Origin: Photobacterium sp. CCB-ST2H9 | Lineage (GTDB): Bacteria > Pseudomonadota > Gammaproteobacteria > Enterobacterales > Vibrionaceae | NCBI RefSeq assembly: GCF_023151555.2 | Contig: NZ_CP100426.1 | Span: forward strand, 1,240,001-1,304,000 | Length of the DNA: 64,000 bases | Reading direction: 5' to 3' | In this document: positions 7,133-52,193 of the stretch, piece after piece | Position numbering within the stretch: the first letter of the stretch is position 1 | Layout of the letters: the number at the start of each line of letters is the position of its first letter | Made by a program: the position numbers and the translations under genes | Notes under the pieces: model-generated | What the model saw: only the letters and a program-made list of their open reading frames with translations | Told to the model about the DNA's origin: nothing | Databases searched by the model: none

Positions 7133-7409
7133 CTATTCAGCAGGAAAAACAACGTCCCACAAAAACTCTTTGGCAACTGATTTTGCTTCTTCTTCAGTTT
7201 CAAAAAAGGAAACTTCGCAATCATCCATTAGTTTTGCCCAAGACAGAGATTCATCACGAAAAGCCTTTTTGAGTTCAGCCTCATACCTTCTCGAAAAGGT
7301 TCATGCTGCAAATATTTTAGAAATGCAGCAATGGCTTCTTCATCATCCAAGCCTGCCTGGGCTCCATAAATCCCAGCCAAAACGCTTTCATTAACTTATA
7401 TGATTCCAT
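7133..7409 (-). pseudogene. Frameshifted small acidic immunity gene
   Basis: Reading three frames in turn restores a protein of about 92 residues. It starts MESYKLMKAFWLGF, continues GAQAGLDDEEAIAAFLKYLQ after a first frameshift near 7360, then YEAELKKAFRDESLSWAKLM and SVAKEFLWDVVFPAE after a second near 7290, with the stop at 7135-7133. The composition (acidic, rich in Glu and Asp) and the position five bases after a toxin tail are those of a CdiI-type protein. The two shifts make it non-functional. Confidence 0.7.
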
Positions 7410-9220: not shown

Positions 9221-9359
9221 GGCTAATAGAATAAGTCAACCTGTAAAATTTTTCAGCGTAGTATAGTGCCATGATGAATTTAATTGAGATTCTGTAGGTC
9301 TTTCAGTGAACAATAACAGTTTAGATCGTTCCTAGTAATCGAACAGTACTTTGAATATT

Positions 9360-17000: not shown

Positions 17001-19719
17001 TACCGGTTAAACCATAGGTAAAACTTTTAATGCCATCATGAGATTTTAATCTGTAAGTCGCTGTAGTGGTATAAACGCCTGTTTTATAACCTTTATTATC
17101 TAGCGTATTGGTCGTGAGGTTCAGGTTTTGATTCACCTGAATCAAACTGGCATCATTCTTTAACGTATTGGATGTCAGTGAAGCATTACCGCCGGCAATA
17201 ATCTGTGATGCTGCGGATTGATTACCAATAACAAGCTTCTCATTTTCAACAACGAAACTGTGCGAGTCGTAAGTAACATATAAACTCGTAGAACAAGACT
17301 CACGATCACCATTCCGTCCTTCACGACATTCCGTTTCATATTTATAAGAAGGCGCATATTTAGAGTTCTTTCCAACCGTAAATTCATTCCGGTTATAATG
17401 AGGGTCGAGCTGGATGCCTTCTCCGGACGATTGTTGGATCTCCAGCACCTTCCGTTTGTTGACGATATTCTCGGCCTTCATCTCCAGATCATCACCGGAC
17501 TGAATCACACCGGACAGATTCTGAACCGACTTCGACAGGGCGCCGCTGGTATCGCCGGCGATCATCATGTTGCCGCCCGTCAGAACATCCCCTTCGGTGT
17601 TCACCAGATCGCCTTTCACATAGAAAGAACCGGTATTACCGGCATACAACAGACCTGTGTTCGAGAGATTGCCAGCGACATTCAGGGTTGTGTCCTGCAT
17701 ACCGAGTGTCGCGCCCTGATTGGTGAACTGCGTCAGGGTCGCCATCAGATTCGTCAGGGCCTGCAAGGTCCCCTGATTATTCAGTCCATTGGCATTGAGT
17801 GTGGTGGAGTTGCCTGAAACCAGTCCTGTTGCCTGGTTGGTCAAAGTCCCACCCGCAGACAACTCGGTATGACCCTGTGCCACCAAGCTGCCTTTGTTGG
17901 TGAGCTGATCACCTGCAGTGATCCGGATATCCTTGAGTGACGTCAGAGTACCGTCGTTGATCATGCTTCCGGCATTGATCTGGATCTGACCATCGCCAGA
18001 GACATCGCCCTGCTGAGCAAAAACTTGCGCCGTAAGAGATTGATCCCCTGCCGCCTGAACATGACCGGTATTTAGCAGCTGTCCCGAGACTTTAATCTGC
18101 TGCGTTCCGACAGATGCCAGCGTCCCTGCGTTTTCAAGCGTATCTGAAATGATCTGCTGGCTGCCGGCAGACATCAGCTTGCCATCGTTTGTCAGTGCAT
18201 CCGCCTGTACCGTCATCTCCGACTGGGCTGTGAGCTGACTTTGATTGCTGATCTGGCTTGCCTGAATTGACAGTGAGTCTGCACTCACTTTGCCCGATCC
18301 TGAAAGCTTCAGCGACTGATCTGAGGCGATTTGCAAGCTTTGCTTCGCGGCAATCTGGCCGTTGTTGATCAGGTTGTCAGCGTCTGTAAATTCCACCTGT
18401 TCAGCCGCAATCGTGCTGCCTGCATTCAGCGCCAGCTGGCTGACACCGCTATGAAACTGACCGGAGACCTGAACAGCACTGTCCGACAGGGTTGCCTCTG
18501 CCGCCTGAATGCTGACCGTACCAGTATTGGTCTCGCTGCCGTCAGACGTCACGCCCGCGGTCAGGGTGCTTTGATTCAATGCCAGCGTATCGGCCTGAAT
18601 CTCAATGTGCTGCGCAGCTGTTTCAGCCTGTGCCAGCGACACCGATTTCGCTTGAAACGATGCACTTTTCCCGGCATTTACCAGACCGTTCAGGTTGATC
18701 TGCTCACCAGCGGATGCCTGAAAACGGGTTGCGGAATTTTCACCGTTAAGATGCAGGCTGTCTGCAGCGGCGTATGCAATCTGCTGCCCGGCCTGTTGTG
18801 TTCCTGTCGTCGAAACCGACTGGTTCGAAATCACCTTGAGCGATTGCTGGCTGCGGACATCACCCAAGGTGATCTGTCCGTCCGCAGAAAGCTGAATATC
18901 CCCGACCGAGCTGAACAGCTTCCCGGTATTGACGCCAACCCCCTGTTCCGTGGCCACCAACGAAATTCGTCCGGCATACATGCCGCCGAGCGCCGAAGAA
19001 TCAATCGCCAGTGCGGGCTGATCCGCACTGGTATGCGTAGCTGTGACTGTGTTGGTTTGGTAATCGATCTGATTTGGTCCGGTGACGACAGACAAATTGT
19101 TTGCATGAATATCCGCGTTGATTTTTGCTGTGCGGGAAAGAATATCGAAATAGTCCTGACCGGTACCGTCCAGCCCCAGTCCACTAATTGTCACATCCCC
19201 CTGCCGGATATCAAAACCACTCAGCAAACCATTCTGAAATTGCGGTACGCCAGTGGTTAAAGTTGCACGTGATGTATTGATAAAACCGCAGCCATCACAG
19301 GTAATGCCGTATGGGTTGGCAACAATCACATTCGCCTGCTTGCCCAAAACTTCCGTATAGCCATTCAGCTGGCTTCGGTTTGCGCCCGTCACTTCATTAA
19401 GAATCACTGAAGCGGCCTGACCGTTCAGCTGGGTATTACCCGACAAATAACCGGCCAGCTGAGACTGAGCGAGTTTTTCTGTTGAGTTATTCAGGATCAG
19501 CCCGGCTTTACCCACGTCGTACTGATCAAACTGGTTATGTGACAGACCTTTGGCATTTGGGGCTGCAATATTCAGCACCGGTACACCGTTCGCCGCTGAA
19601 GTCAGGGTGGCATTATTTGGGCGATTTTGATCCACCTTAATACCGGCCCACACCGGCTGCGTTGCCAGTAACCAGCATAAAACGTAAGTGAAAACTCGCT
19701 TAAATCTTTGATGATGCAT
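11020..19719 (-). CDS. cdiA: CdiA-like contact-dependent toxin exoprotein (TpsA)
   Basis: A giant exoprotein of about 2,899 residues. Start chosen at ATG 19719 (GAGGT five bases upstream); the signal peptide ends ATQPVWA. Residues about 30-300 are a TPS domain with NPYGITCDGCGFI, followed by FHA-type repeats. The centre has the conserved CdiA stretch with YLIETNP, FLGSDYF and VWWEPVEV, a coiled coil near residues 1800-1880, and a second repeat block to about 2200. A pretoxin region carries HETQH (residues about 2405-2409). The C-terminal domain (last 110 residues or so) has RRIDHVV, AETTS and SARKEKQ, an Asp-Glu-Lys order that suggests a nuclease of the PD-(D/E)xK type. GC content drops sharply from about 12,050 on, as usual for exchangeable CdiA-CT. 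Downstream cdiI overlaps. Confidence 0.92.
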   Translation of the reverse strand: MHHQRFKRVFTYVLCWLLATQPVWAGIKVDQNRPNNATLTSAANGVPVLNIAAPNAKGLSHNQFDQYDVGKAGLILNNSTEKLAQSQLAGYLSGNTQLNGQAASVILNEVTGANRSQLNGYTEVLGKQANVIVANPYGITCDGCGFINTSRATLTTGVPQFQNGLLSGFDIRQGDVTISGLGLDGTGQDYFDILSRTAKINADIHANNLSVVTGPNQIDYQTNTVTATHTSADQPALAIDSSALGGMYAGRISLVATEQGVGVNTGKLFSSVGDIQLSADGQITLGDVRSQQSLKVISNQSVSTTGTQQAGQQIAYAAADSLHLNGENSATRFQASAGEQINLNGLVNAGKSASFQAKSVSLAQAETAAQHIEIQADTLALNQSTLTAGVTSDGSETNTGTVSIQAAEATLSDSAVQVSGQFHSGVSQLALNAGSTIAAEQVEFTDADNLINNGQIAAKQSLQIASDQSLKLSGSGKVSADSLSIQASQISNQSQLTAQSEMTVQADALTNDGKLMSAGSQQIISDTLENAGTLASVGTQQIKVSGQLLNTGHVQAAGDQSLTAQVFAQQGDVSGDGQIQINAGSMINDGTLTSLKDIRITAGDQLTNKGSLVAQGHTELSAGGTLTNQATGLVSGNSTTLNANGLNNQGTLQALTNLMATLTQFTNQGATLGMQDTTLNVAGNLSNTGLLYAGNTGSFYVKGDLVNTEGDVLTGGNMMIAGDTSGALSKSVQNLSGVIQSGDDLEMKAENIVNKRKVLEIQQSSGEGIQLDPHYNRNEFTVGKNSKYAPSYKYETECREGRNGDRESCSTSLYVTYDSHSFVVENEKLVIGNQSAASQIIAGGNASLTSNTLKNDASLIQVNQNLNLTTNTLDNKGYKTGVYTTTATYRLKSHDGIKSFTYGLTGKNTTESGVSTISSTISSGGKTVLNVKNKLNNSDIQSDTGSSNAGRPSKQLTDTTASGSQLDILNTEGSGIAFPDFRLPTTPNGLFIYNNGPDSHYLIETNPMLTNLDQFLGSDYFFDSIGFSPEKDLKVLGDAYYDTQTITTAIFEQTGKRYLHDDVGTDLAQMQQLLDNAGQQKHSLNLQAGIALTPEQVAGLTQDIVWWEPVEVKGQQVLAPKLYLSKVTQDNLDGGALISGAEVYAKAGNIVNSGQMDSQGKLHLVSDDSISNLGGSMTAGDDIALVAVNDIQNISGAISGENIALTTENGDIINRTEVERISITQDGTVTTAENASGVVYTGTRVGDTATISGRGKVTMNAGGSIINTAANVSAGSDLSFTAEKDIILAAETDREYMKMRDQEQLNVAVLGSSVFSGGDLSVDAGENISVTASDMEIRGKLAMVAGWDVALDTLVNESFSSETSGNSKSVSHLRQHQRTQMAANDGVFIQSGNNLTATGSQIITKGDVVALAKGDVTFQAVNDSEYHHDETTRKKSFGRKETHIQESLTETVVGADVTAGGKIIVKAQKFDDVQMAGGDSDITLIGANFKAGEGIEASADGSVGVYAQQYRTFSRNEKIKKGFGGFSGSHKSDLDSATLLNASGMMSSDNIDITSGKTIELIASEVEAGGDINASAVDEVIIAAGQESRQRETFEQEYGAFRGGDLFAMDSARQGEIHNTAKGSALTSGGAVNVKGGIVTVIGADVSAETDASFTADTGSVAVLAAEETHTTWSSSESLSVDVKDALKSVVNPYESVNFDDGQAKLTLAKADYEKSDSKTDATTHRGASIMGKGTVLMNAAEDILIEGSEVLADADEDGHGNIELTAANDVLIREVTDTQTTQSSNTKGNGELSLVVQHQSVETGKAAIALKESADKLKQANRDYRQYKKQLDSLEDTLSSLAQALANHEPGVDAADVDELKGIIKEVKNDEAFYLASITLATADLASKTTLLIKQGAAAAQSTSTLGFDAGLHLDMSVAQTDSQSTSTTARGSSLAGQNIVVKSGTQTDQQVLVQGSVLKAKEEVVLDGDTVNVVAAQQTQSGQSSTESGTIGASMTVHGSSTGGSLNASLNLSEQRSQSTSYVNSGVSGSTITINSRGDANIEGANVDAVNALNLDIGGDLNVASVQNRHSASHQGAGISGGASVDESASFSGMNGGLNASKGRSVTSDTLLTTLTSGGTADINVAGNTDITGALVATVDEDGNDLGNLALTTGSLTFRDLNNTDYRQDMSGGLTSSVGLSGSIDWTKNTTTLQYKNTSSYSKDKTLATLGQGEISIADDSDLTALNRDSSTISRDLFDVDRQQGNVDVTLDHRLLTEDGWKEIKEDVKRNGIFVDAVVDTAQNESIGLLGDAAKGVENFFAHQDNKQKFFTATKNFVTEPQNEALVAVLNDSHATPEQKQAAYAALSGYVSAELGIPPAQALLAVVDTFDGDRRKGAYANGTFYVDDREHTRLEDVVTTVGHETQHHIDAQRGHQGEGETYDDNREQYAEVMGEATQDYLSFNYGNADKGEFGGWNTQTGTKGSELIAQNQSHFESDRQSGEMDFRLPNETEQSVLKKLAGDDPDKQLELLSAACSLLNCAKEFALDSPERTYYEQLEREGQDNRELKQLLQNQFVKEWIVSFSPNMAYETETPQFRYSKKDNSEDLEKFGFAQSASLIAKGYDLSEDKTEQALRIGFNIAMFFGAVKASGSGVTNSKAGGGVRQRFPSVQGSKLKSNTSDVGGQQQNSTLKVSEVDSQPLQLPSAEADSLMAKKDVNGRQGSDNGRMPGESVVGNNSLQGPTRGSIRAELDKLPDGQGDNYTVRQNANGSFSAVRKDVNQGHPVRVSQEGNLYSPTASGEPIPNAVEGNRRNFETEAELNARYPEASVQPEQYLRDSDGRIVKDPLTGEGRRIDHVVIQNGKVIDSAETTSLSARKEKQSEKEKRIRDSGGKYVRDRETGCLVEIYCETRIIRRE
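12958..13374 (-). repeat. cdiA segment duplicated at 4338-4754
   Basis: Source copy of the 417-bp direct repeat, at constant offset 8,620 and without gaps. It encodes part of the repeat region before the pretoxin domain. Confidence 0.9.
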
Positions 19720-28945: not shown

Positions 28946-31900
28946 TTACGCAGTGAACACATCTTTCGTGAAACGATACAGGTAGTGCGGACCACCTGCT
29001 TTCGGGCCTGTACCAGACAGTCCCTGTCCACCGAACGGCTGAACACCGACCACAGCACCCACCTGATCACGGTTGATATAGCAGTTACCGACACGGGCAC
29101 GACGCTCAATATGGCTGTAAGTACGTTCGTTACGGCTGTGAACACCCATCGTCAGGCCAAAGCCGGTCTGGTTGATCTGATCAATCACCTGATCCAGCTC
29201 ACTGGCCTTGAAGCGCACGATATGCAGAATCGGACCAAAGTTCTCATTTTGCAGCACATTGATACCGCGAATTTCAAACGCTGTCGGCAGTACGAAGTCA
29301 CCATGGGCGCAATCCGCGCTGGCCGATGCCTGCGCAACCATTTTGGCCTGGTTCTTCAGGGCGCCAATGTGCGTCAGCAGCTTCTGTTTCGCAGTTGCGT
29401 CAATGACCGGACCAACATCTGTACTGTGCAGCTCAGGACGGCCAACCTTCAGTTCCGCCATCGCTCCTTTGATCAGGCCGACCACGCGGTCTGCAACATC
29501 TTCCTGCACAAACAGAACGCGCAGCGCTGAACAACGCTGTCCGGCAGATGCAAAGGCAGAGCGAACAACATCACGGACGACCTGCTCCGGCAACGCGGTA
29601 CTGTCGACGATCATGGCGTTCTGGCCGCCGGTTTCTGCGATAAACGGCACCGGATCGCAATCACGCGCCGCCAGTGTGCGGTTGATGCGCTGTGCAGTCT
29701 CTGTAGAACCGGTAAAGGCAACACCGGCGATTCGGGCATCTGAAGTCAGCACTGAACCCACTTCTGCACCGCGACCCGGAACAAACTGAATCGCACCCGC
29801 CGGAACACCGGCTTCCAGCATCATCTGGATGGCACGGAATGCAATCAGAGATGTTTGCTCTGCCGGTTTACAGACCACAGTGTTCCCTGCCGCCAGTGCC
29901 GCAGACACCTGACCGAGGAAAATGGCCAACGGGAAGTTCCATGGACTGATACAGGCGAACACGCCACGTCCCTGATAGGTCAGTGTGCGTTCCTGTCCGT
30001 CAAAGCCCACCACAGGTTTCCCTGCCGCAAATTCAGTGGCAGCCTGATGCGAATAGAAGCGCAGGAAGTCCACCGCTTCACGGATCTCGTCAATACTGTC
30101 CTGAATTGTTTTACCGGCTTCACGATGACACAGCGCAACCAGCTCACCGGTATTGGCTTCCAGCAGATCTGCCAGACGCTGAAGGCAGGCACCGCGCTCC
30201 GCAGCCGGAGTCGCCGACCATGCCGGGAAAGCTTCAGCGGCAACATCAATTGCTTTCGCCACCAGCTCGCTGCTGGCAAAGGCAACCTCACCGACCGATT
30301 CACGACGGTCATAAGGTGCAGTCACTTTGTAAATGTCACCGCTCTGCATTTCGCCGTTCACAATCGCGCCAGCAGTCCAGTGGTGCTCCGCATAAGCTTC
30401 AACGGATTCACGGAATGGCTGCCACTCAGAAGCGATATCAATATTGATACCGGCAGAGTTCTTGCGATCAGCACCAAAGATATCGTTTGGCAACGGGATC
30501 AGATGGTTATGCAGCGTCGGACGCGAACGCAGCATATCGACCGGATGCTGAACCAGATCCGAAATCGGACAACGGGCATCAACCAGACGGTGGACGAAAG
30601 AGCTGTTCGCACCATTTTCCAGCAGACGGCGAACCAGATACGGCAACAGATCTTTATGGCTGCCGACCGGCGCATAAATACGGACGTTCACGCCATAGAG
30701 CGCCATCACGTGGTTATACAGCGCATCACCCATGCCGTGCAGGCGCTGGAATTCAAAGTCACGGTGCTTGGCCATTGCCAGAATTGCAGTCACCGTGTGA
30801 GCGTTGTGGCTTGCAAACTGCGGGAAGATCAGGCCACGAATGTGTGGCGACAACAGGAAGCGCGCACAAGCCAGATAAGACGTATCTGTCGCTTCCTTGC
30901 GGGTATATACCGGATAACCCTGGTAACCGCTTTGCTGACACAGTTTCAGTTCGCTGTCCCAGTACGCACCTTTTACCAGACGCAGCGGGATCACATCCCC
31001 CTGTTCTTTACTCAGTGCTGCCAGCCAGGCCAGAACAGGTAGCGCACGCTTCGAGTACGCCTGAACGACCAGACCAAAACGGCCCCAGCCTTTCACTTCT
31101 TCTGAACGGTACAGTTTTTCAAACAGTTTCAGAGACAGTTCCAGACGATCGGCTTCTTCCGCATCGATCGTGATGCCAACGTTCAGTTCGCGGGCGCGTT
31201 TGAGCAGTTCCAGCACGGTGTCAAACATTTCTGTCAGGACACGGTCTTCGTTAGAAACATCGTAACGCGGGTGCAATGCAGACAGTTTGATCGAAACGGT
31301 CGGGCAAGGTGAATTGGAATGCTTTTTGTTGTTCAGGCCAACGGCTTCAATCGCTTCAATATAATCGTTGAAGTATTTCTTGGCATCGTCCTGCGTCAGT
31401 GCCGCTTCACCCAGCATATCGAACGAATAGGTGAACCCTTTATCGCGCTTCGACTGACCATTTTTCATGGCTTCGCCAATGGTACGGCCCAGCACGAACT
31501 GGTGGCCCATGATTTTCATGGCCTGATGCATCGCTTTACGGATCACCGGCTCAGACATTTTATTCGTCAGGCGGTTGATCACACGTGCAGGGCTGCCATC
31601 TTGCTTGGCGTCCATGCTGATCACTTTACCGGTCAGCATCAGACCCCAGGTGGATGCATTCACAAACAGGGAATCGGAGTTTTTCAGGTGAGTCTTCCAG
31701 TCCGCAACGCTCAGCTTATCGCGGATCAGCGCATCTGCTGTCGCTGCATCAGGAATCCGCAACAGGGCTTCGGCCAGACACATCAGCAAAATGCCTTCTT
31801 TTGTGTCCAGGCTGTATTCCAGCAACAGGGCATCAATCATCTGGATTGCACTGCGATCAGCACGCACCTGTTCGATCAGGCTGGTGGCCTTATCCGTGGT

Positions 31901-32056
31901 GTACTGACGCTCTTGTTCAGAAGGCTCAGCCAGAGGCAACAGTTGTTCCAGCCAGGCAGATTCATCAACCGAATAAAGCGGTGAGATCTGCTGCCATAGT
32001 GCATCTAAAGGTTGCTCAATAAAAGATGGCTGAAGGGCATCTGCCGCATTGAACAT
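28946..32056 (-). CDS. putA: Bifunctional proline dehydrogenase / P5C dehydrogenase PutA
   Basis: A 1,036-residue enzyme that oxidises proline to glutamate. The proline dehydrogenase barrel spans about residues 80-480 (YRSEEVKGWGRFGLVVQAYSKRALPVL, RLVKGAYWDSELK, YTRKEATDTSYLACARFLL). The P5C dehydrogenase follows, with ETGGQNAMIVDSTALPEQ and the catalytic Cys in ASAGQRCSALRVLF. It lacks the N-terminal ribbon-helix-helix domain found in E. coli PutA, so it should not repress its own operon. Start at 32056 (GAGGGA seven bases upstream) rather than the ATG-like codon at 32098. Confidence 0.96.
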   Translation of the reverse strand: MFNAADALQPSFIEQPLDALWQQISPLYSVDESAWLEQLLPLAEPSEQERQYTTDKATSLIEQVRADRSAIQMIDALLLEYSLDTKEGILLMCLAEALLRIPDAATADALIRDKLSVADWKTHLKNSDSLFVNASTWGLMLTGKVISMDAKQDGSPARVINRLTNKMSEPVIRKAMHQAMKIMGHQFVLGRTIGEAMKNGQSKRDKGFTYSFDMLGEAALTQDDAKKYFNDYIEAIEAVGLNNKKHSNSPCPTVSIKLSALHPRYDVSNEDRVLTEMFDTVLELLKRARELNVGITIDAEEADRLELSLKLFEKLYRSEEVKGWGRFGLVVQAYSKRALPVLAWLAALSKEQGDVIPLRLVKGAYWDSELKLCQQSGYQGYPVYTRKEATDTSYLACARFLLSPHIRGLIFPQFASHNAHTVTAILAMAKHRDFEFQRLHGMGDALYNHVMALYGVNVRIYAPVGSHKDLLPYLVRRLLENGANSSFVHRLVDARCPISDLVQHPVDMLRSRPTLHNHLIPLPNDIFGADRKNSAGINIDIASEWQPFRESVEAYAEHHWTAGAIVNGEMQSGDIYKVTAPYDRRESVGEVAFASSELVAKAIDVAAEAFPAWSATPAAERGACLQRLADLLEANTGELVALCHREAGKTIQDSIDEIREAVDFLRFYSHQAATEFAAGKPVVGFDGQERTLTYQGRGVFACISPWNFPLAIFLGQVSAALAAGNTVVCKPAEQTSLIAFRAIQMMLEAGVPAGAIQFVPGRGAEVGSVLTSDARIAGVAFTGSTETAQRINRTLAARDCDPVPFIAETGGQNAMIVDSTALPEQVVRDVVRSAFASAGQRCSALRVLFVQEDVADRVVGLIKGAMAELKVGRPELHSTDVGPVIDATAKQKLLTHIGALKNQAKMVAQASASADCAHGDFVLPTAFEIRGINVLQNENFGPILHIVRFKASELDQVIDQINQTGFGLTMGVHSRNERTYSHIERRARVGNCYINRDQVGAVVGVQPFGGQGLSGTGPKAGGPHYLYRFTKDVFTA

Positions 32057-32419
32057 AGTCATTCCCTCAATATAGTGGACCTGAATAACCATCAACACAG
32101 TTTGACATGTGATTCAGGATAAATGTTACACCAGTGTTACTTTAACGGGGGATTTTATTTTGTACCTGTCGCAGAGTCTTACCAAAAACTCCGATCATTT
32201 GTCGAAAAAGTCCGCTTTATAACAAAATTAGACCCAAGTAATTAGCAAAAAATGCTGTTTTCACTTTTAATTGCTGTAAGAAACAGCAACCCGGGTGCCT
32301 GAAAAGATAATTCAGTGAAAAGTGACCTGTGAGAAAAGCAGCAGAAATAGCGGCAGAGAAATATAAAAGCGAATCGGTTTATGCTTTGGGAGAATAAAGA
32401 AAGTCAGGGCTGGCGGCCG
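32057..32419. other. Spacer upstream of putA
   Basis: Carries the putA promoter region and the 3' flank of the AraC-type gene. No operator or RNA was recognised with confidence. Confidence 0.4.
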
Positions 32420-33205
32420 TCAGATCCATTGACGGCGAAATTTGGCTGGTGAGACCCCAAAGTGACGGGAGAACGCCTGTGTAAAGTTACTCTGGCTGGC
32501 AAAACCGGATGACTGTGCGATTTGCGCCAGACTCAGCCTCGGCTCTTCCATCAGCTGGCGTGCAAACTCCAGACGCTTCAGCAGCACATACTGGTGCGGC
32601 GTCATCCCGGTTTGCTCTTTAAACACCAAGTGGAACTGGCTCTCTCCAAGAAACACCAGTCCGGCCATCTGCGCCACCGTGATCTTACGGGACAGATGCT
32701 GCTGAATGTAGTGATCGATGGCATCCATATTTAACCTTGGCAGATACCGCTCAGACGCCAGGGGTTTAAAGTGTCGCTGTAAGACGCACATTAATGTATC
32801 TGTGCAGGCTTTACTGAGCAGCCAGTCATCCGGATTGGCCTGCATTTCGGCCGTCAGTGCACGAATCAGGGTTTGCGCCTGATTATCCAGATGAAAATAC
32901 GAAGACTGATCAAACAGCCTGTGCATCCGCTCGACCGGATAGTCAGGTGCAGTTTCCGTAACCGGCACGTTCAGTACCAAAATCTCATTATGACCAATGC
33001 CGGAAAAACCGTGCTCTGAATCCGCCGTCACCAGACAACCCTGACCGGGACACACCAGACTGCCGCATCCTTCAATATCAAATTCAGTCTGTCCTGCCAG
33101 TGCAATCACCACCTGGTTGTAACCATGATTGTGGTGATCCATATGCTCCGGCAGTTTCATGATCTCCGCAGGTTTGAACCCTGACAGAGGGGACATATCC
33201 TTCAT
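32420..33205 (-). CDS. AraC-family regulator, probable regulator of put genes
   Basis: A 261-residue AraC-type activator: N-terminal cupin-like sensor (HNHGYNQVVIALAGQTEFDIEG), and a C-terminal double helix-turn-helix (KITVAQMAGLVFLGESQFHLVFKEQTGMTPHQYVLLKRLEFARQLM, then LAQIAQSSGFASQSNFTQAFSRHFGVSPAKFRRQW). It is the gene just upstream of putA on the same strand. Because this PutA has no repressor domain, an AraC-type regulator is the natural candidate for proline control; that link is inference from position. Confidence 0.88.
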   Translation of the reverse strand: MKDMSPLSGFKPAEIMKLPEHMDHHNHGYNQVVIALAGQTEFDIEGCGSLVCPGQGCLVTADSEHGFSGIGHNEILVLNVPVTETAPDYPVERMHRLFDQSSYFHLDNQAQTLIRALTAEMQANPDDWLLSKACTDTLMCVLQRHFKPLASERYLPRLNMDAIDHYIQQHLSRKITVAQMAGLVFLGESQFHLVFKEQTGMTPHQYVLLKRLEFARQLMEEPRLSLAQIAQSSGFASQSNFTQAFSRHFGVSPAKFRRQWI

Positions 33206-33325: not shown

Positions 33326-33739
33326 CTTGATCATCTTTCCTGTATCCCCCGGAAAAAGCGATCACGAGGCTTCGGAAGCGTGATCAAGACTCAACTTTTT
33401 ACGGGCAGTGTCATTTCAATTTTATCCCGATGAATTTTCAGTCAGCCGCATTGGCAATCGACTGAAAAGATCCATCCGGGAATCACCCCGGATGCAACAA
33501 ATGATAAATCAATAACTTAAATCAATTTGTCTTGATCATTGTTCCGTTCATGTTGAACGTTATCCCTGTCAACGCTCCCGGAAGATCCAAAAGCCGTTTG
33601 ATCTTCCCTTGATCATTGTTCTGTCACTTACTGAGACGCCGTCTGGCTCACACCAGATCCTGCAATAAAGATCCAGCTTGATCATCTTTCCAGTCCAAAT
33701 GACACAGCCCGTTAATTATCCCAGCTTGATCATTTTTCC
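33326..33739. repeat. Cluster of six RctB-type boxes, 15 kb from ori2
   Basis: Copies of CTTGATCATCTTTCC or close variants: 33326-33340 and 33677-33691 (perfect), 33531-33545 (..TTGTTCC), 33608-33622 (..TTGTTCT), 33725-33739 (..TTTTTCC), and one inverted (33374-33388, CTTGATCACGCTTCC). The same box occurs in ori2 at 49274-49288, in the rctB promoter and at 52179-52193. They lie in a 739-bp gene-free stretch between the AraC-type and AEC genes (33206-33944), which otherwise shows nothing else. Confidence 0.8.
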
Positions 33740-33944
33740 AGAGTAAAAATCATGTGTTGCATGGCATTTGGCCGGATATCTTCCGGTTGAGAGAGACCAG
33801 CGACTACCCGCCACGGGTAAAACATCGAAATTGACAAATAAATCGGTTGGTTACTGCCACTTTACAGGCGTTGTGGTAAAACAGGATCAGTAATATTCAC
33901 TGAACTTCAGCCTCCCCCCAGACCTATTGAGATAAGGAAATACA

Positions 33945-34901
33945 ATGGGTGAGTTTCTGACACAGTTTTCTTTCTCTTTTACGGTCACCGGCCCGATTTT
34001 TTTGATGCTGGCGCTTGGTATCGCCCTGAAACACTGGGGAATTATCAATGAAGCCTTTATACAAAGCGGATCAAAACTGGTATTCACGGTCACTTTACCC
34101 ACGCTTCTCTTTCTGAATCTGATCAATACCGACATTCACCGGCTGGGCAATGGATCCCTTTATCTGTTTGCCGCACTCGCAAATGTTATTATTTTTCTGT
34201 TGTTTGAAACGCTGGCCGGAAAAATGATCAAGGAGCCGAATGAACGTGGTGTTGTTGTCCAGGGCGCATTTCGGGCGAACACCGGCATTATTGGGCTGGC
34301 TTATGTTGCCAATGCTTACGGTGATGCCGGTATCGCTGTGGGAGCACTCTATGTTGCTGTGATCACTGTGCTGTACAATATTATGGCCGTGATCACGCTC
34401 AGTCGCTCCAGCGCAGCCTCCGCTTCCCTTGATCATCGTTACGTCCTCAAAGCGATTCTGAAGAACCCCTTGATCATCGGCATTTGCAGTGCCCTGCCAT
34501 TTACTGTCCTTGAAATCCGGCTCCCTGAAGTTCTGATGCAATCGGGCCGATACTTTGCCGACATGACCTTACCACTGGCATTGCTCTGTACCGGAGCCAG
34601 CCTGGATCTGCGTCAGCTGAAACAGGAATCATCCCATGCCAATCTTTCATCGATCGCACGCTTGATCATCGCTCCGGGATTGATCACGCTTGCCGGCTAT
34701 ATATACGGTTTTCGCGGCAACGAATTAGGGATCATTTTTCTGATGAGTGCCGCGCCAACAGCGGCTGCAAGCTATGTCATGGCAAGAGCAATGGGCGCAA
34801 ATGCCAATCTAGCCGCAAATATCATTGCCATGACGACAGTAGGCTCGATGTTCACCTGCAGTCTGGGGCTGACTCTTTTAAAGACACTGAATATCATCTG
34901 A
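33945..34901 (+). CDS. AEC-family (auxin efflux carrier type) transporter
   Basis: A 318-residue inner-membrane transporter with about ten helices arranged as two inverted halves, typical for the AEC family (KHWGIINEAFIQSGSKLVFTVTLPTLLFLNLI in the first half, LPLALLCTGASLDLRQLK and SAAPTAAASYVMARAMGANANLAANIIAMTT in the second). Start ATG has AAGGA at good distance. Substrate unknown; members export or import small organic acids. The coding sequence contains four more CTTGATCA-type boxes, continuing the cluster upstream. Confidence 0.9.
   Translation: MGEFLTQFSFSFTVTGPIFLMLALGIALKHWGIINEAFIQSGSKLVFTVTLPTLLFLNLINTDIHRLGNGSLYLFAALANVIIFLLFETLAGKMIKEPNERGVVVQGAFRANTGIIGLAYVANAYGDAGIAVGALYVAVITVLYNIMAVITLSRSSAASASLDHRYVLKAILKNPLIIGICSALPFTVLEIRLPEVLMQSGRYFADMTLPLALLCTGASLDLRQLKQESSHANLSSIARLIIAPGLITLAGYIYGFRGNELGIIFLMSAAPTAAASYVMARAMGANANLAANIIAMTTVGSMFTCSLGLTLLKTLNII
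34428..34694 (+). repeat. RctB-like boxes inside the AEC gene
   Basis: Boxes at 34428-34442 (CTTGATCATCGTTAC), 34469-34483 (CTTGATCATCGGCAT), 34661-34675 (CTTGATCATCGCTCC) and 34680-34694 (TTGATCACGCTTGCC). The third matches the intergenic consensus at 13 of 15 positions. They fall in coding sequence (e.g. LDHRY, LIIAPGLI), so part of the match could be codon usage. Confidence 0.5.
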
Positions 34902-46361: not shown

Positions 46362-47339
46362 TTATTTCAGATAATCGGCCAGATAGGCAAGAATCTCATC
46401 TGCCTGCTGGTCGGAAAGCTGACTCAATTTCAGCTGAAGTTTGTCGCCATCACGGACATAAGTCGCCTGGCCCCGAACCAGCTCAACTGCCTGAGGCTTA
46501 CTGTCGACCGGCGCTTTCGGACGTACCTGCTCACTCAACTGCTCGATATGGCTGGTCACTTCGCGAGTGATCCGGGTAATTCCCTGGGCATCGACGCTTT
46601 GCCATACCGGCTGCTCCTGCTGAGACAGTGCGGCAACAAAGGATTTCTGCTGTTCATCATCCATCGAGGAATAGAGCTTGTGCAGCTTGACAATCGTCGG
46701 GCGGCCAAGCTCCCCGACACTAGGATAAGCCATCAAGAGTTCCATCGGCAGACTGGCTGCTTTCAGCGCACCACTCACCAGCGCTTCACTGCACTGACAG
46801 TACCGGGCCAAGGCTTTCTGATCAGCCACTTTACCGCCAGCCAGCAGCGCCTGCATTTCTTTTCCCCGCTCATACAGAGACAAAGGCTTGTGCGCGTTTG
46901 CAACATCAGACAGGAATTTCGCGTGGTGGCTATTGATTCCCTTGGCAACGTAAATCAGAAAATCCTGTTTCGCCAGCAAACACGCCATGCGGCGACGGCT
47001 GCCATCCAGAACTTCGATCCGGCCGTCATCCATCCAGCGTCCGACCGCCGGATACTGCTGGCCACGATCTTTCAGGGTCGTCAGAATATCGGCCAACGCA
47101 TGTTCATTGAGAAATGCCTGCTCACGGGCATTCTGAGCAAATACCTGAGTTTTTGTGCCAATTTCATCCGCAATGACTTTGACCAGCTCAAAAGCAACCG
47201 TCGTTTCACCCGCAACGGCAAGCTCAATCACAGCCGCTTTATCTTTGACCGCACTTTGTACTTCGGCAACAGTCGTCGCGCGCCGTTTATCGGCTTTACC
47301 GAACAGACGGGCATTCAGATCATTCGTTTTTATTGCCAC
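46362..47339 (-). CDS. parB2: Chromosome II partition protein ParB2
   Basis: A 325-residue ParB that binds parS2 and spreads to form the segregation complex of chromosome II. The N-terminal CTPase motif is visible as RIEVLDGSRRRMACLL (the GSRRR of the C motif), then the helix-turn-helix region KALARYCQCSEALVSGALKAASLP, and a short C-terminal dimerisation helix. It sits directly behind parA2 with a three-base gap, so the two are co-translated. Its seven target sites in the window lie at 41457, 41499, 44109, 44138, 48784, 52274 and 58856. Confidence 0.96.
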   Translation of the reverse strand: MAIKTNDLNARLFGKADKRRATTVAEVQSAVKDKAAVIELAVAGETTVAFELVKVIADEIGTKTQVFAQNAREQAFLNEHALADILTTLKDRGQQYPAVGRWMDDGRIEVLDGSRRRMACLLAKQDFLIYVAKGINSHHAKFLSDVANAHKPLSLYERGKEMQALLAGGKVADQKALARYCQCSEALVSGALKAASLPMELLMAYPSVGELGRPTIVKLHKLYSSMDDEQQKSFVAALSQQEQPVWQSVDAQGITRITREVTSHIEQLSEQVRPKAPVDSKPQAVELVRGQATYVRDGDKLQLKLSQLSDQQADEILAYLADYLK

Positions 47340-47342
47340 CTG

Positions 47343-48560
47343 TTATTTCTCCTGGTTCAAATTCGCCCAGTGACTGTGCATGACACGTTCCAGCTCAAGG
47401 CCAACCCGCTGAACCGCGTCCTGGGCAGTTGATAAGGTTTTCTTACCCCCTTCAAAATCTGACGTTGTCAGATCGAAGACGGTACTGTAAGTATCCGCGC
47501 AAGTCTCAAAAGCACGGCTGCGAGGCACAGTGGCCATCATCACCTGCTCCTGAAGCAGATAGTTCATTTCAGTCAGAACAGAAACCTGTTTTTTATTGTC
47601 ATCTTCAAACATGGTCGGGACCAGGCGAATAAACTCCAGTCCGTGCCAGTCTTCCGGGAACATTTCGTACACCGTAGGCAGATGCTGGAAGAAATTCACC
47701 GTAGATGCCCAGTCCAGACGCTTCGCCGCACAAGGGATCAGCAAAGCATTGGATGCATACATCGCGTTCCAGACCAAAGGATCGATGTGCGGGCCGGTAT
47801 CAATCATAATGATGTCGAATTCATCCTCGATCTGATCAATCACACGCTCTTTCAGCAGGCGGACAATATCCAGATTCTGATTTACCGCCAGATCCTGCCA
47901 CGCATCAGCATTGAACATTGCATCTTCAGGAAAAGCGGCAATCGTTTTCAGATTCGGATACTGAGTCGGCATCACCACGTTATTCATCAGAAAGGTTTTA
48001 TCCGTTGCCAGCTCTTCCGGAATATTCCCCAGCATCACATCCACTGCCGAGTAAATATTTTCCTGATCACCGATGCTGATTTGCGGGTTCAGAAATAAAC
48101 GGAGAGAACCTTGGGGATCCAGGTCAATCAGGCAGATACGGTAACGCTTTTCCAGATCTAGCGCCAAACAGGCCGCCAGGTGAACTGCGGTCATCGATTT
48201 ACCGGTTCCGCCTTTCTGGTTTTGCACGTTCACAACCCAGGGCTTACGTTTGCCATTTTGCCGTTCATGGAAAGCCGGACGCTCAGCGGCATCCATCAGC
48301 ATGTGCGCTTCACTCAGGGTGATCGAGTAATGATTGGCATTATTTTTCGTGAACTGATGACCGGCTTCTTCCATCCGGGCAATCGCTTCATCCAGTTTAC
48401 GACGGGTCAGACCGGAACGGGTTTCCATCAAAGCTTTCGACATCGATGGGAAATGATCATCCCTGCGTTCTTCCAACACAATCTCAATTCGGTCCGCCTG
48501 GACCTGTTTGGTCTGCTCTGCAATATTGAGCAAGTTTTCAATTGTTTCTAACCGATTCAT
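47343..48560 (-). CDS. parA2: Chromosome II partition ATPase ParA2
   Basis: A 405-residue ParA of the large type (type Ia, P1/Vibrio ParA2-like): N-terminal helix-turn-helix (SMSKALMETRSGLTRRKLDEAIARMEEAGHQF) for autoregulation and deviant Walker A NQKGGTGKSMTAVHLA, Walker B-type DIIMIDTGPHIDPLVWNAM. It moves the ParB2-parS2 complex. It is transcribed away from ori2, divergent from rctB. A parS2 site lies 224 bases upstream of its start, near its promoter. Confidence 0.97.
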   Translation of the reverse strand: MNRLETIENLLNIAEQTKQVQADRIEIVLEERRDDHFPSMSKALMETRSGLTRRKLDEAIARMEEAGHQFTKNNANHYSITLSEAHMLMDAAERPAFHERQNGKRKPWVVNVQNQKGGTGKSMTAVHLAACLALDLEKRYRICLIDLDPQGSLRLFLNPQISIGDQENIYSAVDVMLGNIPEELATDKTFLMNNVVMPTQYPNLKTIAAFPEDAMFNADAWQDLAVNQNLDIVRLLKERVIDQIEDEFDIIMIDTGPHIDPLVWNAMYASNALLIPCAAKRLDWASTVNFFQHLPTVYEMFPEDWHGLEFIRLVPTMFEDDNKKQVSVLTEMNYLLQEQVMMATVPRSRAFETCADTYSTVFDLTTSDFEGGKKTLSTAQDAVQRVGLELERVMHSHWANLNQEK

Positions 48561-48783
48561 GTTGTTCTTTCACCCTACAGTGTGTTTGGCAAAATTGTAC
48601 AACATAAATATACAAAAACAACAAAAAGCTGAACGTATAACTGTGACAAACACCTCAAGTCAAATTTATGTCAAACTTGATAAAAGGCGTATTTTTCGAC
48701 AAAAACGATACAAAATAAGCCTAAACTTTATGTGAAGCCAGATGACTCAACAGCCTGAGATTTAAAATGTCACAGTGTCACAA

Positions 48784-48798
48784 ATTTACAATGTAAAG
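48784..48798. repeat. parS2 centromere site 5
   Basis: ATTTACAATGTAAAG, match to the consensus, inside ori2 on the parA2 side. Confidence 0.88.
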
Positions 48799-48979
48799 CA
48801 ATTTTAAGTCTGATTCTCTGGAAGCCTGATCAATCACGGCTAAAGTACGAGCATTGTCGTTTCAACTTAAATTCGCTGCCGATTTCAACCTGAAAGACAG
48901 CAACGTCCGTACGGAAGCTGCCCTAGCAATCGTCTGCAGACCCCAATCCGGTCCCCTCCAACATCCATTCGGTATTTAC

Positions 48980-49428
48980 CTTGATCATGCTTCGGAACAG
49001 ATCGAGGGAAAACGAAACGATGATCAAGGGAATATTTGTACAGGACTTCAACGAAAAAACAGCTGAAATGACAAAGACAAGATCGGATCAATGATCAAGG
49101 TTTGATCCTGTCATTCATCTGGTTTCGGATCCCACCGGAAGCATCCTTATCAGCCACTAAATTACGGTCAGTGCTTGATGTACTTGAATCCAGAGTAAAG
49201 AAAACAGACTGAAAGAGAAGAAATCCAGGCTCCTTGGCTCTATAGGTGGCAATTGAAATGACACGGTTCCTGTCTTGATCATCTTTCCTTTACCGGACAC
49301 ATATAAAACCTCGCTGCAATTACGGGAAGTGTCATTTTGAAAATGACGAAAAAAACATCAGCGGGAGCGGCGGATACAATGAAACGGTCGCCAGAGAGTC
49401 AAAATAGCACTCACTTGATCATCGTTCT
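48980..49428. promoter_or_regulatory. Regulatory RctB boxes in the left arm of ori2
   Basis: Boxes of the CTTGATCATNNTTCC type at 48980-48994 (+), 49014-49028 (inverted), 49085-49099 (inverted), 49274-49288 (+, perfect CTTGATCATCTTTCC) and 49414-49428 (+, CTTGATCATCGTTCT). The first two form an inverted pair 19 bases apart. In V. cholerae the corresponding region limits initiation. Confidence 0.75.
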
Positions 49429-49513
49429 GACTGTAAAAACACATCCATTTCCCCATCCTGATGCTTTTTCAGCCTGAACCGTACAGGGAAAATCAAAACG
49501 CCATGAACAACTC

Positions 49514-49522
49514 TGTGGATAA
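49514..49522 (-). promoter_or_regulatory. DnaA box of ori2
   Basis: TGTGGATAA, the exact complement of the strong DnaA box TTATCCACA, 16 bases before the first iteron. Confidence 0.9.
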
Positions 49523-49534
49523 CCTGTAAAAATT

Positions 49535-49662
49535 CATTGATCATGTTTCTGTCACAATAATGATCATGCTTTCAAATCATTGTTGATCATGAATCCGGAG
49601 ACAATATGATCATGCTTGCCGAACGATGTTGATCACCGATCCGAAACATCATTGATCATACT
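49535..49662 (+). repeat. Six RctB iterons of the ori2 core
   Basis: TGATCA cores at 49538, 49561, 49584, 49607, 49630 and 49653, i.e. exactly 23 bp apart throughout, all in the same orientation and with the extension CATG(C/T)TT in most copies. Every core contains a GATC, so binding should depend on Dam methylation as known for V. cholerae RctB. Confidence 0.95.
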
Positions 49663-49692
49663 TCCAGTGCGCTGATAAATTTAGCTTTTAAT

Positions 49693-49771
49693 TATCATGA
49701 GCTTAGCTTGACTTTTTTGCCCGGATCATAAGATCAGTTCATCAGATAGATCATTCAAATCAAAAAGATCA
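49693..49771 (+). promoter_or_regulatory. Unwinding element with ATCA repeats
   Basis: AT-rich segment with ATCA at 49725, 49733, 49741, 49750, 49759 and 49768 (spacing 8, 8, 9, 9, 9) and one outlier at 49694. In V. cholerae RctB binds such repeats as single strand during opening. Confidence 0.8.
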
Positions 49772-49825
49772 TGATTAAAAAGCCACAGTAAAAAAAGCTT
49801 TCATTCTTAGTATTTTTTTATTATT

Positions 49826-49846
49826 CTTTCCGGAAAGATGATCAAT
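49826..49846. promoter_or_regulatory. RctB operator at the rctB promoter
   Basis: CTTTCCGGAAAG is a perfect 12-bp palindrome (49826-49837) overlapping an inverted RctB box (49832-49846; ATTGATCATCTTTCC on the minus strand), 17 bases before the rctB start. A binding site here fits autoregulation. Confidence 0.75.
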
Positions 49847-49862
49847 TTACGGCCTTTGACAG

Positions 49863-51866
49863 ATGAAGTCCTCCGCGACACGTGATGAGAAATACGACGA
49901 AAAGATCCTGATCTCCGCACCTCGATCCCACAAGGACGGGCATTTATTTTCAATTCCTCAGGCTTTGATCGACTGGCTGCCCCAATATCAGCATTTTAAA
50001 GGTGTGACTAAAAGCATCATTGAATTGCTGAATCTGATTTCCCTGCGAGGCCTTTCAAGCCAGGACGGCATGGTGTCGACAACGGAACTGGTTGAAGCGA
50101 CAGAAGGTCAGTTAACCCGTGCCGCGATACAGCAACGTCTGCGGGCTGCCGTCAGTATTGGACTGTTTATTCAGCAGCCTGTGCGGTTTGAGGAAGGGCT
50201 GGCCGGAAAAACCATGCTGCACCACTTCATCAATCCGGCGTTGCTGATCTCTCAGCTGGGCACTGCCGGTTTACAGTCAGATCAGAGCAAGGAAAAAGAA
50301 AAGCAGAAGCGCTCAAAGGCCCTGGCACAGAATGTCGTGAATAAACGACTGCTGAATGAGCATGGACTGGGAACCCCACCCATGATGCCGGATGAAGCCG
50401 ATCAAATTGTTGTATCTCCGACCAGCTGGGCCGGGATCATTGATCAGGCACTGGCGCCGCCGCGAACCAAGAAAAGCTATCAGAAATCGATGGTTGCGAT
50501 TTCCGGCACCCGGGCGATCATTGAGACACGATCCTCGAAGGCGATCATGACGGTAGACGACATGATGACCCTGTTTGCCCTGTTCACTCTGACCGTGCAG
50601 TACCATGATCATCATTTGCCGGAATATGAGCTGCAATCGCGGCACATGAGCAATAAAACGCCCATCTATATCACCGATATTCTCGCGCTGCGCGGGAAGA
50701 AGGACAGCGGTCCGGCCCGGGATTCAATCCGTGAAAGTATCGACCGGATCGAGTTTACGGACTTTCAGCTGCATGAGCTGACAGGGCGCTGGCTGAGTGA
50801 AAATATGCCGGAAGGTTTCAAAAGTGATCGCTTCCGTTTTCTGGCCCGTACCATCACCGCGTCTGAAGAAGCACCGCAGGAAGGCGAAGACGGTGAAATC
50901 CGGATCAAGCCGAATCTGTATATTCTGGTGTGGGAACCCTCGTTTTTTGAAGAACTGCTGACACGCGATTATTTCTTCCTGTTCCCGCCGGAGATCCTCC
51001 GTCAGCATACGTTGATCTTCCAGCTGTATACCTTCTTCCGGAGCCGGATGACCCGGCGCGGGCACGACAGCATGCTCCTGAGTGAACTGAATCAGAAGCT
51101 GGCCCGTAACATCGAATGGCGTCGTTTTTCGACTGATTTGATCCGTGAACTGAAAAAGCTCGCGGAAGGGAAGGTGACTGAGTCGTTGTTTGCGGTGAAC
51201 CTGTGGGGCTATCACCTGACCATCAGTCCGGCAGAAGGGAAAGCATCCCGTTATCAGGACTATCAGATTGAGATCAAGTGTGATGCCGAAGAGGTCATTC
51301 GTTTCTCTCGTGCGAAGATGCACAACGAAGGCAAACGCTCGCTGGCACCCACGATGCCCAACCCGCTGCGAAACGAAATCCTGCCGCGTCAGGAGCTCGA
51401 ACAGCTGTCTTCTATCATTGACGGTGAGTTCGAGCCGATACAACGCAAGGAAGGGCGCCCGAAGGGCCGTTTGGGGCGTCGTGTGAAGCTCAGAAAGCAT
51501 CTGGTTGAGATTAATGCCGATGAGCTGACCATTGTCCTGTCAAAATATACCTCTCAGGAGGCCCTGCAACGCAGTATCACGGCGCTTTCTGCCATGTCTG
51601 GACATGCGGCCAGCGTGATCACGGAAGAATGTCAGGGCTATCTGGATAAGCTGGACTGGTTGCGTGTGGGCAGCGAAGTCGTGGCTTATGAGACGCTGAG
51701 TAAAATGGTCGAGTTGTTTAACAATCAACATGATGAGCGCCATCTGTCGATTGAACGACTGATTTCAGGGTTGGCTGTGCGGCGCAAAGTGTGCAAGTTG
51801 GTGCATGAGGGGCACATCAATGATCAGGTCCTGACGGCACTGGATGATATTGCGAACGGCAGATAG
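49863..51866 (+). CDS. rctB: Chromosome II replication initiator RctB
   Basis: A 667-residue initiator found only in Vibrionaceae chromosome II (V. cholerae form 658 residues). The N-terminal region starts RSHKDGHLFSIPQALIDWLPQYQHFKGVTKSI; winged-helix DNA-binding parts follow over the first 500 residues (GQLTRAAIQQRLRAAVSIGLF; RKGRP-type basic stretch RKEGRPKGRLGRRVKLRKH near 540), and the C-terminal domain is the one that limits copy number. It binds the iterons and ATCA repeats next to its gene. Start ATG at 49863; the ribosome-binding site is weak, which suits low expression. Confidence 0.98.
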   Translation: MKSSATRDEKYDEKILISAPRSHKDGHLFSIPQALIDWLPQYQHFKGVTKSIIELLNLISLRGLSSQDGMVSTTELVEATEGQLTRAAIQQRLRAAVSIGLFIQQPVRFEEGLAGKTMLHHFINPALLISQLGTAGLQSDQSKEKEKQKRSKALAQNVVNKRLLNEHGLGTPPMMPDEADQIVVSPTSWAGIIDQALAPPRTKKSYQKSMVAISGTRAIIETRSSKAIMTVDDMMTLFALFTLTVQYHDHHLPEYELQSRHMSNKTPIYITDILALRGKKDSGPARDSIRESIDRIEFTDFQLHELTGRWLSENMPEGFKSDRFRFLARTITASEEAPQEGEDGEIRIKPNLYILVWEPSFFEELLTRDYFFLFPPEILRQHTLIFQLYTFFRSRMTRRGHDSMLLSELNQKLARNIEWRRFSTDLIRELKKLAEGKVTESLFAVNLWGYHLTISPAEGKASRYQDYQIEIKCDAEEVIRFSRAKMHNEGKRSLAPTMPNPLRNEILPRQELEQLSSIIDGEFEPIQRKEGRPKGRLGRRVKLRKHLVEINADELTIVLSKYTSQEALQRSITALSAMSGHAASVITEECQGYLDKLDWLRVGSEVVAYETLSKMVELFNNQHDERHLSIERLISGLAVRRKVCKLVHEGHINDQVLTALDDIANGR

Positions 51867-52178: not shown

Positions 52179-52193
52179 CTTGATCATCTTTCC
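52179..52193 (+). promoter_or_regulatory. RctB box downstream of rctB
   Basis: CTTGATCATCTTTCC, identical to the box in ori2 at 49274-49288, 80 bases before a parS2 site. Confidence 0.75.

What the first reader, a model, noticed from the sequence alone, without database searches (positions are those of the whole stretch)
33326..34694. Distal cluster of RctB-type boxes, six intergenic and four inside the AEC gene
Identical 15-mers CTTGATCATCTTTCC occur here, in ori2, in the rctB promoter and after rctB. Ten boxes within 1.4 kb, 15 kb from ori2, could titrate the initiator in a way comparable to datA for DnaA; I recall a distant RctB-binding site cluster on V. cholerae chromosome II, but I cannot verify it is the same. 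Extension of the boxes into a coding gene would be unusual.
Basis: partly seen in the sequence, partly recalled or inferred. Interest (0 to 1): 0.78.

Follow-up and report, generated by a model that had tools for sequence, protein, structure and literature searches.

The report
Conserved distal RctB-site cluster near ori2
Near the replication origin of its second chromosome, this marine Photobacterium carries a dense, very old patch of DNA sites that look like binding sites for the protein that starts copying of that chromosome; the patch is probably a brake on replication, and it is a larger relative of a site already tested in Vibrio cholerae.

Summary
The cluster is real: CTTGATCA occurs 10 times in 33326-34668, against 3.8 expected in the whole window. 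Nine of the ten are good RctB boxes, six intergenic and three inside the AEC gene; the one at 34469 is probably coincidence.

They form two composite iteron+39-mer units facing opposite ways, with an IHF-like site between them.

In 50 of 50 evaluable Photobacterium loci the cluster has at least one composite unit. It persists in 16 of 42 loci without the AEC gene. Three coding boxes show raised synonymous conservation only in clades that carry them.

Composite units also lie beside the same araC gene in 7 of 7 named chromids opened. The layout matches chrII-10 and chrII-5/-6 of V. cholerae, which bind RctB and inhibit chromosome II replication (PMC3937223).

Best reading: an expanded, structured version of that inhibitory locus, restraining ori2 by titration and probably bridging. 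RctB binding was not tested here. Known kind, new variant.

The parts
33326..33340 (+). iteron-type RctB box CTTGATCATCTTTCC (score 23.4)
33374..33388 (-). iteron-type box of composite unit A (score 18.8)
33399..33416 (+). 39-mer-like motif TTACGGGCAGTGTCATTT of unit A, 10 bp after the box, no mismatch to TWACGGNNNNTGTCATTT
33507..33519 (+). IHF-consensus match AATCAATAACTTA between the two units
   Evidence: consensus recalled
33531..33545 (+). iteron-type box (score 24.1)
33608..33622 (+). iteron-type box (score 20.9)
33670..33673 (.). GATC 7 bp before the next box; a GATC at -7 or -8 is kept in 37 of 38 genomes with the 48-bp box pair
33677..33691 (+). iteron-type box, first of the pair 48 bp apart (score 23.4)
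33697..33714 (-). 39-mer-like motif TAACGGGCTGTGTCATTT of unit B, no mismatch
33725..33739 (+). iteron-type box of composite unit B, second of the pair (score 23.4)
34218..34232 (-). box inside the AEC gene (score 23.4), synonymous sites conserved in the 11 genomes compared as carriers
34428..34442 (+). box inside the AEC gene (score 21.1), synonymous sites invariant in the 7-genome clade
34469..34483 (+). CTTGATCA inside the AEC gene, rejected as an RctB box: score under 14, no special synonymous conservation
34661..34675 (+). box inside the AEC gene (score 19.2), synonymous sites conserved in 17 genomes; a box lies at the same codons in G056, another genus
33945..34901 (+). AEC-type transporter gene (Pfam Mem_trans); absent beside the cluster in 16 of 42 Photobacterium loci
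32420..33205 (-). AraC-family regulator gene, the neighbour shared across genera
28946..32098 (-). putA, neighbour shared across genera; carries a box pair in most g12 loci fetched
48561..49862 (+). ori2 region between parA and rctB, with the iteron-type boxes and one perfect 39-mer-like motif at 49320-49337
49863..51866 (+). rctB, the replication initiator expected to bind the cluster
52179..52193 (+). single box after rctB, same 15-mer as 33326

Best explanation
The cluster is the Photobacterium version of a distal RctB-binding locus shared across Vibrionaceae genera, known from V. cholerae as chrII-10 with chrII-5/-6. RctB binds the Dam-methylated iteron-type boxes and the two 39-mer-like sites (inferred). 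The two composite units face opposite ways with an IHF-like bend site between them, so bound RctB probably forms one compact complex. That complex takes RctB away from ori2 and probably also bridges to ori2 in trans. The locus lies about 11-33 kb from rctB in the 42 Photobacterium genomes mapped, so it is duplicated soon after ori2 fires; its doubled inhibitory capacity would then help block re-initiation until crtS is copied on chromosome 1. Shown here: sequence, architecture, conservation, shared neighbourhood, synonymous constraint. Shown by others in V. cholerae: RctB binding to, and inhibition by, the sites taken as orthologous. Inferred: binding, complex shape and timing role in Photobacterium.
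For: Nine boxes sharing the ori2 consensus, far above chance. Composite box-10 bp-TWACGG units with 25/26 bp start spacing: unit A in 42 of 50 Photobacterium loci, unit B type in the rest, at least one in 50 of 50. IHF match within one mismatch in 39 of 42 intervals against a shuffle mean of 15.0, largest 27. Extra GATC 8.4 per kb in the cluster against 4.4 outside, higher in 42 of 50. Synonymous constraint on three coding boxes. Composite beside araC in 7 of 7 named chromids opened, 8 units found where 0.46 were expected by chance. In V. cholerae chrII-10 is an iteron nested in a 39-mer that binds RctB, inhibits mini-chrII, and whose deletion raised oriII/terII (PMC3937223).
Against: No binding data exist for Photobacterium. 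Deleting chrII-10 in V. cholerae gave no growth phenotype (PMC3937223). A later V. cholerae study found about 10-fold higher RctB signal at ori2 than elsewhere, and that removing three prominent chromosome 1 sites had minimal effects (PMC11711613). The V. cholerae sequence itself was not opened, so orthology rests on geometry and on other vibrios. Box number falls to two in 10 of 50 loci. Related genomes are not independent.
Confidence: 0.72

Rival explanations
1. Pure titration: the cluster is only a passive sink for RctB, and arrangement of the boxes does not matter.
For: Box number (score >=15 within 1.5 kb) varies from 2 to 9 between species, as expected if only capacity matters. Most single V. 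cholerae distal sites behaved as titrators relieved by more RctB (PMC3937223, section 7).
Against: Fixed spacings are kept across the genus: 25/26 bp, 48 bp, GATC at -7. The matching composite site chrII-10 inhibited in a way that more RctB did not relieve (PMC3937223, section 7).
Confidence: 0.15
2. RctB acts here as a transcription regulator of the AEC, araC or putA genes, and the boxes are operators.
For: Six boxes lie in the intergenic stretch between divergent araC and AEC genes. RctB represses its own gene, and one V. cholerae gene with an RctB site in its promoter changed weakly (PMC11711613).
Against: The cluster stays in 16 of 42 loci without the AEC gene. Boxes inside the AEC gene are conserved too. 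No sigma-70-like promoter was found in the intergenic part (a weak test). In V. cholerae RctB was concluded to regulate only its own transcription (PMC11711613).
Confidence: 0.07
3. A second, or relic, RctB-dependent origin: a displaced copy of ori2.
For: It shares box and 39-mer-like sequences, GATC richness and an IHF-like site with ori2.
Against: No TTATCCACA DnaA box in the cluster, and no regular head-to-tail iteron array like the 23-bp one at 49536-49651. A V. cholerae fragment with chrII-5/-6 had no origin activity (PMC3937223, section 7).
Confidence: 0.03
4. Chance or protein-coding coincidence.
For: One of the ten copies, 34469, is explained by the conserved peptide NPLII.
Against:: far above shuffles, and the same arrangement in 50 of 50 evaluable loci.
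Confidence: 0.01

Closest known systems
V. cholerae distal chrII RctB sites, above all chrII-10 and chrII-5/-6 (Baek and Chattoraj 2014, PMC3937223)
   Same: Outside ori2 on the rctB chromosome; iterons with TGATCA; an iteron joined to a 39-mer; two iterons about 3 kb from the composite site, the layout also seen in most g12 loci beside araC and inside putA.
   Different: In V. [quoted passage not shown] here nine boxes and two 39-mer-like motifs in 1.35 kb, about 14 kb from ori2, in two inverted composite units with an IHF-like site between, and boxes inside an AEC gene.
39-mer / 29-mer inhibitory RctB sites of ori2
   Same: TTACGG-type RctB motif; a perfect copy of the motif used here lies at 49320 in this ori2.
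   Different: The distal units have an iteron box at a fixed 10 bp from the motif; the ori2 copy at 49320 has none at that place.
E. coli datA
   Same: Cluster of initiator boxes near the origin, with an IHF-like site; proposed brake on re-initiation.
   Different: Boxes are for RctB, not DnaA; no TTATCCACA DnaA box in the cluster. datA promotes hydrolysis of DnaA-ATP (PMC3937223 introduction), for which there is no evidence here.
crtS (chromosome 1 site)
   Same: Distal DNA site acting on ori2 through RctB.
   Different: crtS enhances ori2 firing and lies on chromosome 1; this cluster lies on the rctB replicon and is made of inhibitory-type sites.

Membership tests
chrII-10-type distal RctB site | iteron with conserved TGATCA, outside ori2, on the rctB replicon | tested here: met
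   nine boxes
chrII-10-type distal RctB site | iteron combined with a TTACGG-type 39-mer in one short site | tested here: met
   two units with no motif mismatch
chrII-10-type distal RctB site | same gene neighbourhood as chrII-10 | tested here: inconclusive
   araC beside the unit in 17 of 17 g12 loci (chosen by motif) and 7 of 7 named chromids (not chosen by motif); V. cholerae itself matched only by published coordinates and spacing
chrII-10-type distal RctB site | binds RctB and inhibits ori2 replication in trans | not testable with these tools
   needs EMSA, ChIP or plasmid assay
datA | cluster of DnaA boxes | tested here: not met
   no TTATCCACA between 33300 and 34700
datA | IHF site within the box cluster | tested here: met
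   consensus match only: exact at 33507; exact in 13 of 42 and within one mismatch in 39 of 42 intervals
datA | promotes inactivation of the initiator | not testable with these tools
   biochemistry needed
RctB-dependent origin | regular array of iterons plus a DnaA box | tested here: not met
   irregular spacing and no DnaA box in the cluster

The most novel reading that the evidence does not exclude
The two inverted composite units, the IHF-like bend and the paired GATC sites build a defined RctB nucleoprotein complex, an RctB counterpart of datA, that actively locks RctB in its inhibitory form or cuffs it to ori2. Its box number, kept even inside a coding gene, would tune the crtS-to-ori2 delay, which was among the longest in Photobacterium profundum and is unexplained (PMC5854411, section 10).
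Probability: 0.3. Interest if true: 0.77.

Novelty: new variant of a known kind. Interest (0 to 1): 0.6.

Why it matters
The distal RctB sites of V. cholerae were found by ChIP, and deleting chrII-10 gave no growth phenotype, so their importance stayed open. A composite unit found in five genera, fixed geometry and constraint on silent codon positions suggest that they matter. The Photobacterium version is large and compact, hence easy to delete or move as one piece. [quoted passage not shown]

Tried and rejected
Rejected: ten equal boxes (34469 fails score and conservation); RctB as regulator of the AEC gene (cluster kept without AEC in 16 of 42 loci); second origin; chance.

Errors corrected on the way. 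One search returned no training sites because of an index slip. The first box matrix was trained on 30 rctB loci of which the minus-strand ones had not been reversed, so part of the training DNA was the wrong flank; searches used it. It was rebuilt; searches use the new one, and the cluster maps agree in layout. (first synonymous test) had the same strand error and is superseded. The first whole-cluster alignment was too gappy and was replaced by an anchored view. In one search unit A is missing in 8 of 50: in G032 its box fell just under the threshold (14.5 with the first matrix) and in G037 the contig starts there; the other six have unit B only. Lists were cut by the tool and were used only for the rows shown.

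Literature: PMC3937223 read in passages and section 7; PMC11711613 in passages and section 6; PMC5854411 in passages and section 10; PMC6090056, PMC9201469 and PMC3688505 in passages; the rest as search listings. No title in the listings concerned this cluster in Photobacterium or family-wide conservation of chrII-10, and chrII-10 was found in one paper only. The library lacks most subscription journals, and supplementary files could not be read.

Full report
Setting. The window is bases 1240001-1304000 of a 1.505 Mb replicon (C2) in a 5.17 Mb genome of three contigs. rctB is 49863-51866, parA 47343-48560(-), and a ParB-like gene 46362-47339(-). The closest by RctB is G013 (99%), the one matching P. 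galatheae.

Observation. Ten CTTGATCA lie at 33326-34668 out of 22 in the window; shuffle mean 3.81, largest 9. With a matrix trained on 347 sites from 30 Photobacterium rctB-upstream regions, 20 sites reach score 17 in the window against a shuffle mean of 0.36, and no shuffle had two in 1.4 kb. Nine of the ten cluster sites score 18.8-24.1; the copy at 34469 does not reach 14. In the whole genome CTTGATCATNNTTCC occurs 8 times without mismatch: five in the cluster, one in ori2, one after rctB, one on the 80 kb contig C3. The rctB-promoter copy differs by one base from the 15-mer.

Anatomy. The intergenic part holds two copies of a composite unit. Unit A is box(-) 33374-33388, 10 bp, then the 39-mer-like motif TTACGGGCAGTGTCATTT(+) at 33399. 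Unit B is the same unit reversed, box(+) 33725-33739 with the motif(-) at 33697-33714, plus a further box 48 bp before. TWACGGNNNNTGTCATTT has three perfect matches in the 64 kb: these two and one in ori2 at 49320. The TTACGG motif marks 29/39-mer RctB sites in V. cholerae ChIP-seq (PMC11711613, section 6). Between the units lies an IHF consensus at 33507-33519.

Conservation in the genus. rctB is in 52 of 52 genomes. Distal loci were read for 42 genomes and for nine of the other ten (and loci). G047 has no match to the neighbouring pdxH-like gene, and in G023 the contig ends and no box was found. In the remaining 50 of 50, at least two boxes and at least one composite unit are present. Unit A is found in 42 of 50; the box-to-motif start distance is 25 bp in 39 of these and 26 bp in three. 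The 48-bp box pair is in 38 of 50, and in 36 of those 38 the reversed motif lies 28 bp before the second box with at most four mismatches. A GATC lies within 12 bp before the pair in 37 of 38, at -7 in 36. The IHF consensus is exact in 13 of 42 and within one mismatch in 39 of 42 intervals; shuffles gave means of 1.1 and 15.0, maxima 7 and 27. Related genomes are not independent, so these counts overstate significance. In the 42 genomes mapped, the cluster is about 11-33 kb from rctB on the parA side. The AEC gene is absent beside it in 16 of 42, and the cluster remains.

Boxes in the coding gene. In 28 AEC genes I compared synonymous codon identity at each box with other windows of the gene. 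34218: 0.94 in 11 genomes that keep the ATGATCAAG core, 1 of 312 windows as high; in the other 17 genomes 0.44, 99 of 314. 34428: 1.00 in the seven-genome clade, 2 of 314; in all 28 genomes 0.45, 78 of 314. 34661: 0.92 in 17 genomes, 2 of 290; in the other 11 genomes 0.36, 229 of 310. 34469: 0.75 in the seven-genome clade, 26 of 313, and 62 of 297 in the 17-genome set. Counts include the box's own window. The groups were chosen by looking at the boxes, so the contrast with the remaining genomes is the useful part. In G056, of another genus and with an AEC protein 50% identical, a full-score box lies at the same codons as 34661. Three coding boxes therefore look selected as DNA, and the fourth does not.

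Other genera. The composite pattern with at most two mismatches is in 104 of 296 family genomes, with no hit of the reversed control in the rows. It undercounts, since it also misses some Photobacterium clusters, and some hits are off-target. An exact collection scan gave 26 stretches: 20 Photobacterium, 5 Salinivibrio, 1 Vibrio. Besides Photobacterium, G055, G056 and G058 of three other genera have a unit with a 25 bp start distance. Seventeen g12 loci (presumably Vibrio), chosen because they matched, have the araC homologue beside the unit in 17 of 17, putA in 16 of 17, and a box pair 90 bp apart inside putA in 15 of 17, mostly about 3 kb from the unit. As a check not chosen by motif, I took the 12 named chromid records with a full-length RctB, found the araC homologue in 12 of 12, and opened 7: four Vibrio, two Salinivibrio, and one Photobacterium whose record length equals that of contig C2 of G041. 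In two of the four Vibrio the 39-mer part has five mismatches, so it is weak there. In Vibrio sp. HDW18 putA is not between araC and putP, yet the 90-bp box pair remains there. Distances from rctB, computed from the coordinates, run from about 12 kb (G156, taking the replicon as circular) to about 347 kb (G256); V. campbellii has the unit about 41 kb away. The local gene neighbourhood is kept although the locus has moved.

Link to V. cholerae. [quoted passage not shown] chrII-10, an iteron nested in a 39-mer, lies between 1027995 and 1028034; chrII-5/-6 lie within 1024390-1025604 (PMC3937223). The roughly 3 kb spacing and the two-iteron plus composite arrangement are those of the g12 loci above. 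VCA1073 is described as PutA-like (PMC9201469), a locus number that fits that part of chromosome II (inference). Extra RctB did not relieve inhibition by chrII-10; its deletion changed oriII/terII in the direction opposite to extra copies, which lowered it, but gave no growth phenotype.

Against the reading. RctB signal in V. cholerae is about 10-fold higher at ori2 than elsewhere, and removal of three prominent chromosome 1 sites had minimal effects. In 10 of 50 Photobacterium loci only two boxes remain. No binding experiment exists for this organism.

Mechanism. Best supported: a distal RctB inhibitory locus, duplicated early after ori2 fires, which holds RctB away from ori2 and probably bridges to it. 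Pure titration explains the varying box number but not the fixed geometry. A regulator role for nearby genes and a second origin are unlikely.

Novelty. The kind is known. New, within the papers searched, are the paired inverted composite units with an IHF-like site, the presence of the locus in every evaluable Photobacterium, its shared gene neighbourhood across genera, and selected boxes inside a gene. P. profundum shows one of the longest crtS-to-ori2 delays, without explanation (PMC5854411, section 10); whether this locus causes it is a guess that can be tested.

Noticed in passing
G000 contig C3 (79,850 bp): 9341-9355 (L228) and 47718-47732 (L229): The third replicon carries one perfect-consensus RctB box, CTTGATCATTGTTCC, inside an ORF (L228 8265-9656, minus strand), and one weaker box. 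It may be chance.
   Followed up: partly
window 17956-17970 and 62152-62166: Two further high-scoring RctB-type boxes (21.8 and 22.8) lie inside long ORFs of the window, outside the cluster and ori2.
   Followed up: no
L231 (Vibrio sp. HDW18) 7040-7144: putA is not at its usual place between araC and putP, yet the pair of boxes 90 bp apart that lies inside putA in other vibrios is still there. This hints at selection on the box pair itself.
   Followed up: no
G005 C32, G024 C5, G026 C26, G049 C36, G252 C3; plasmid records H13-H20: Distant RctB relatives (about 21-30% identity) occur as second copies in some genomes and on plasmids.
   Followed up: no
upstream of the cluster, for example L067 (G008), L069 (G001), L073 (G044): Several Photobacterium loci have another inverted high-scoring box about 1.1 kb before unit A, around the putA-araC border; the window lacks it.
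   Followed up: no
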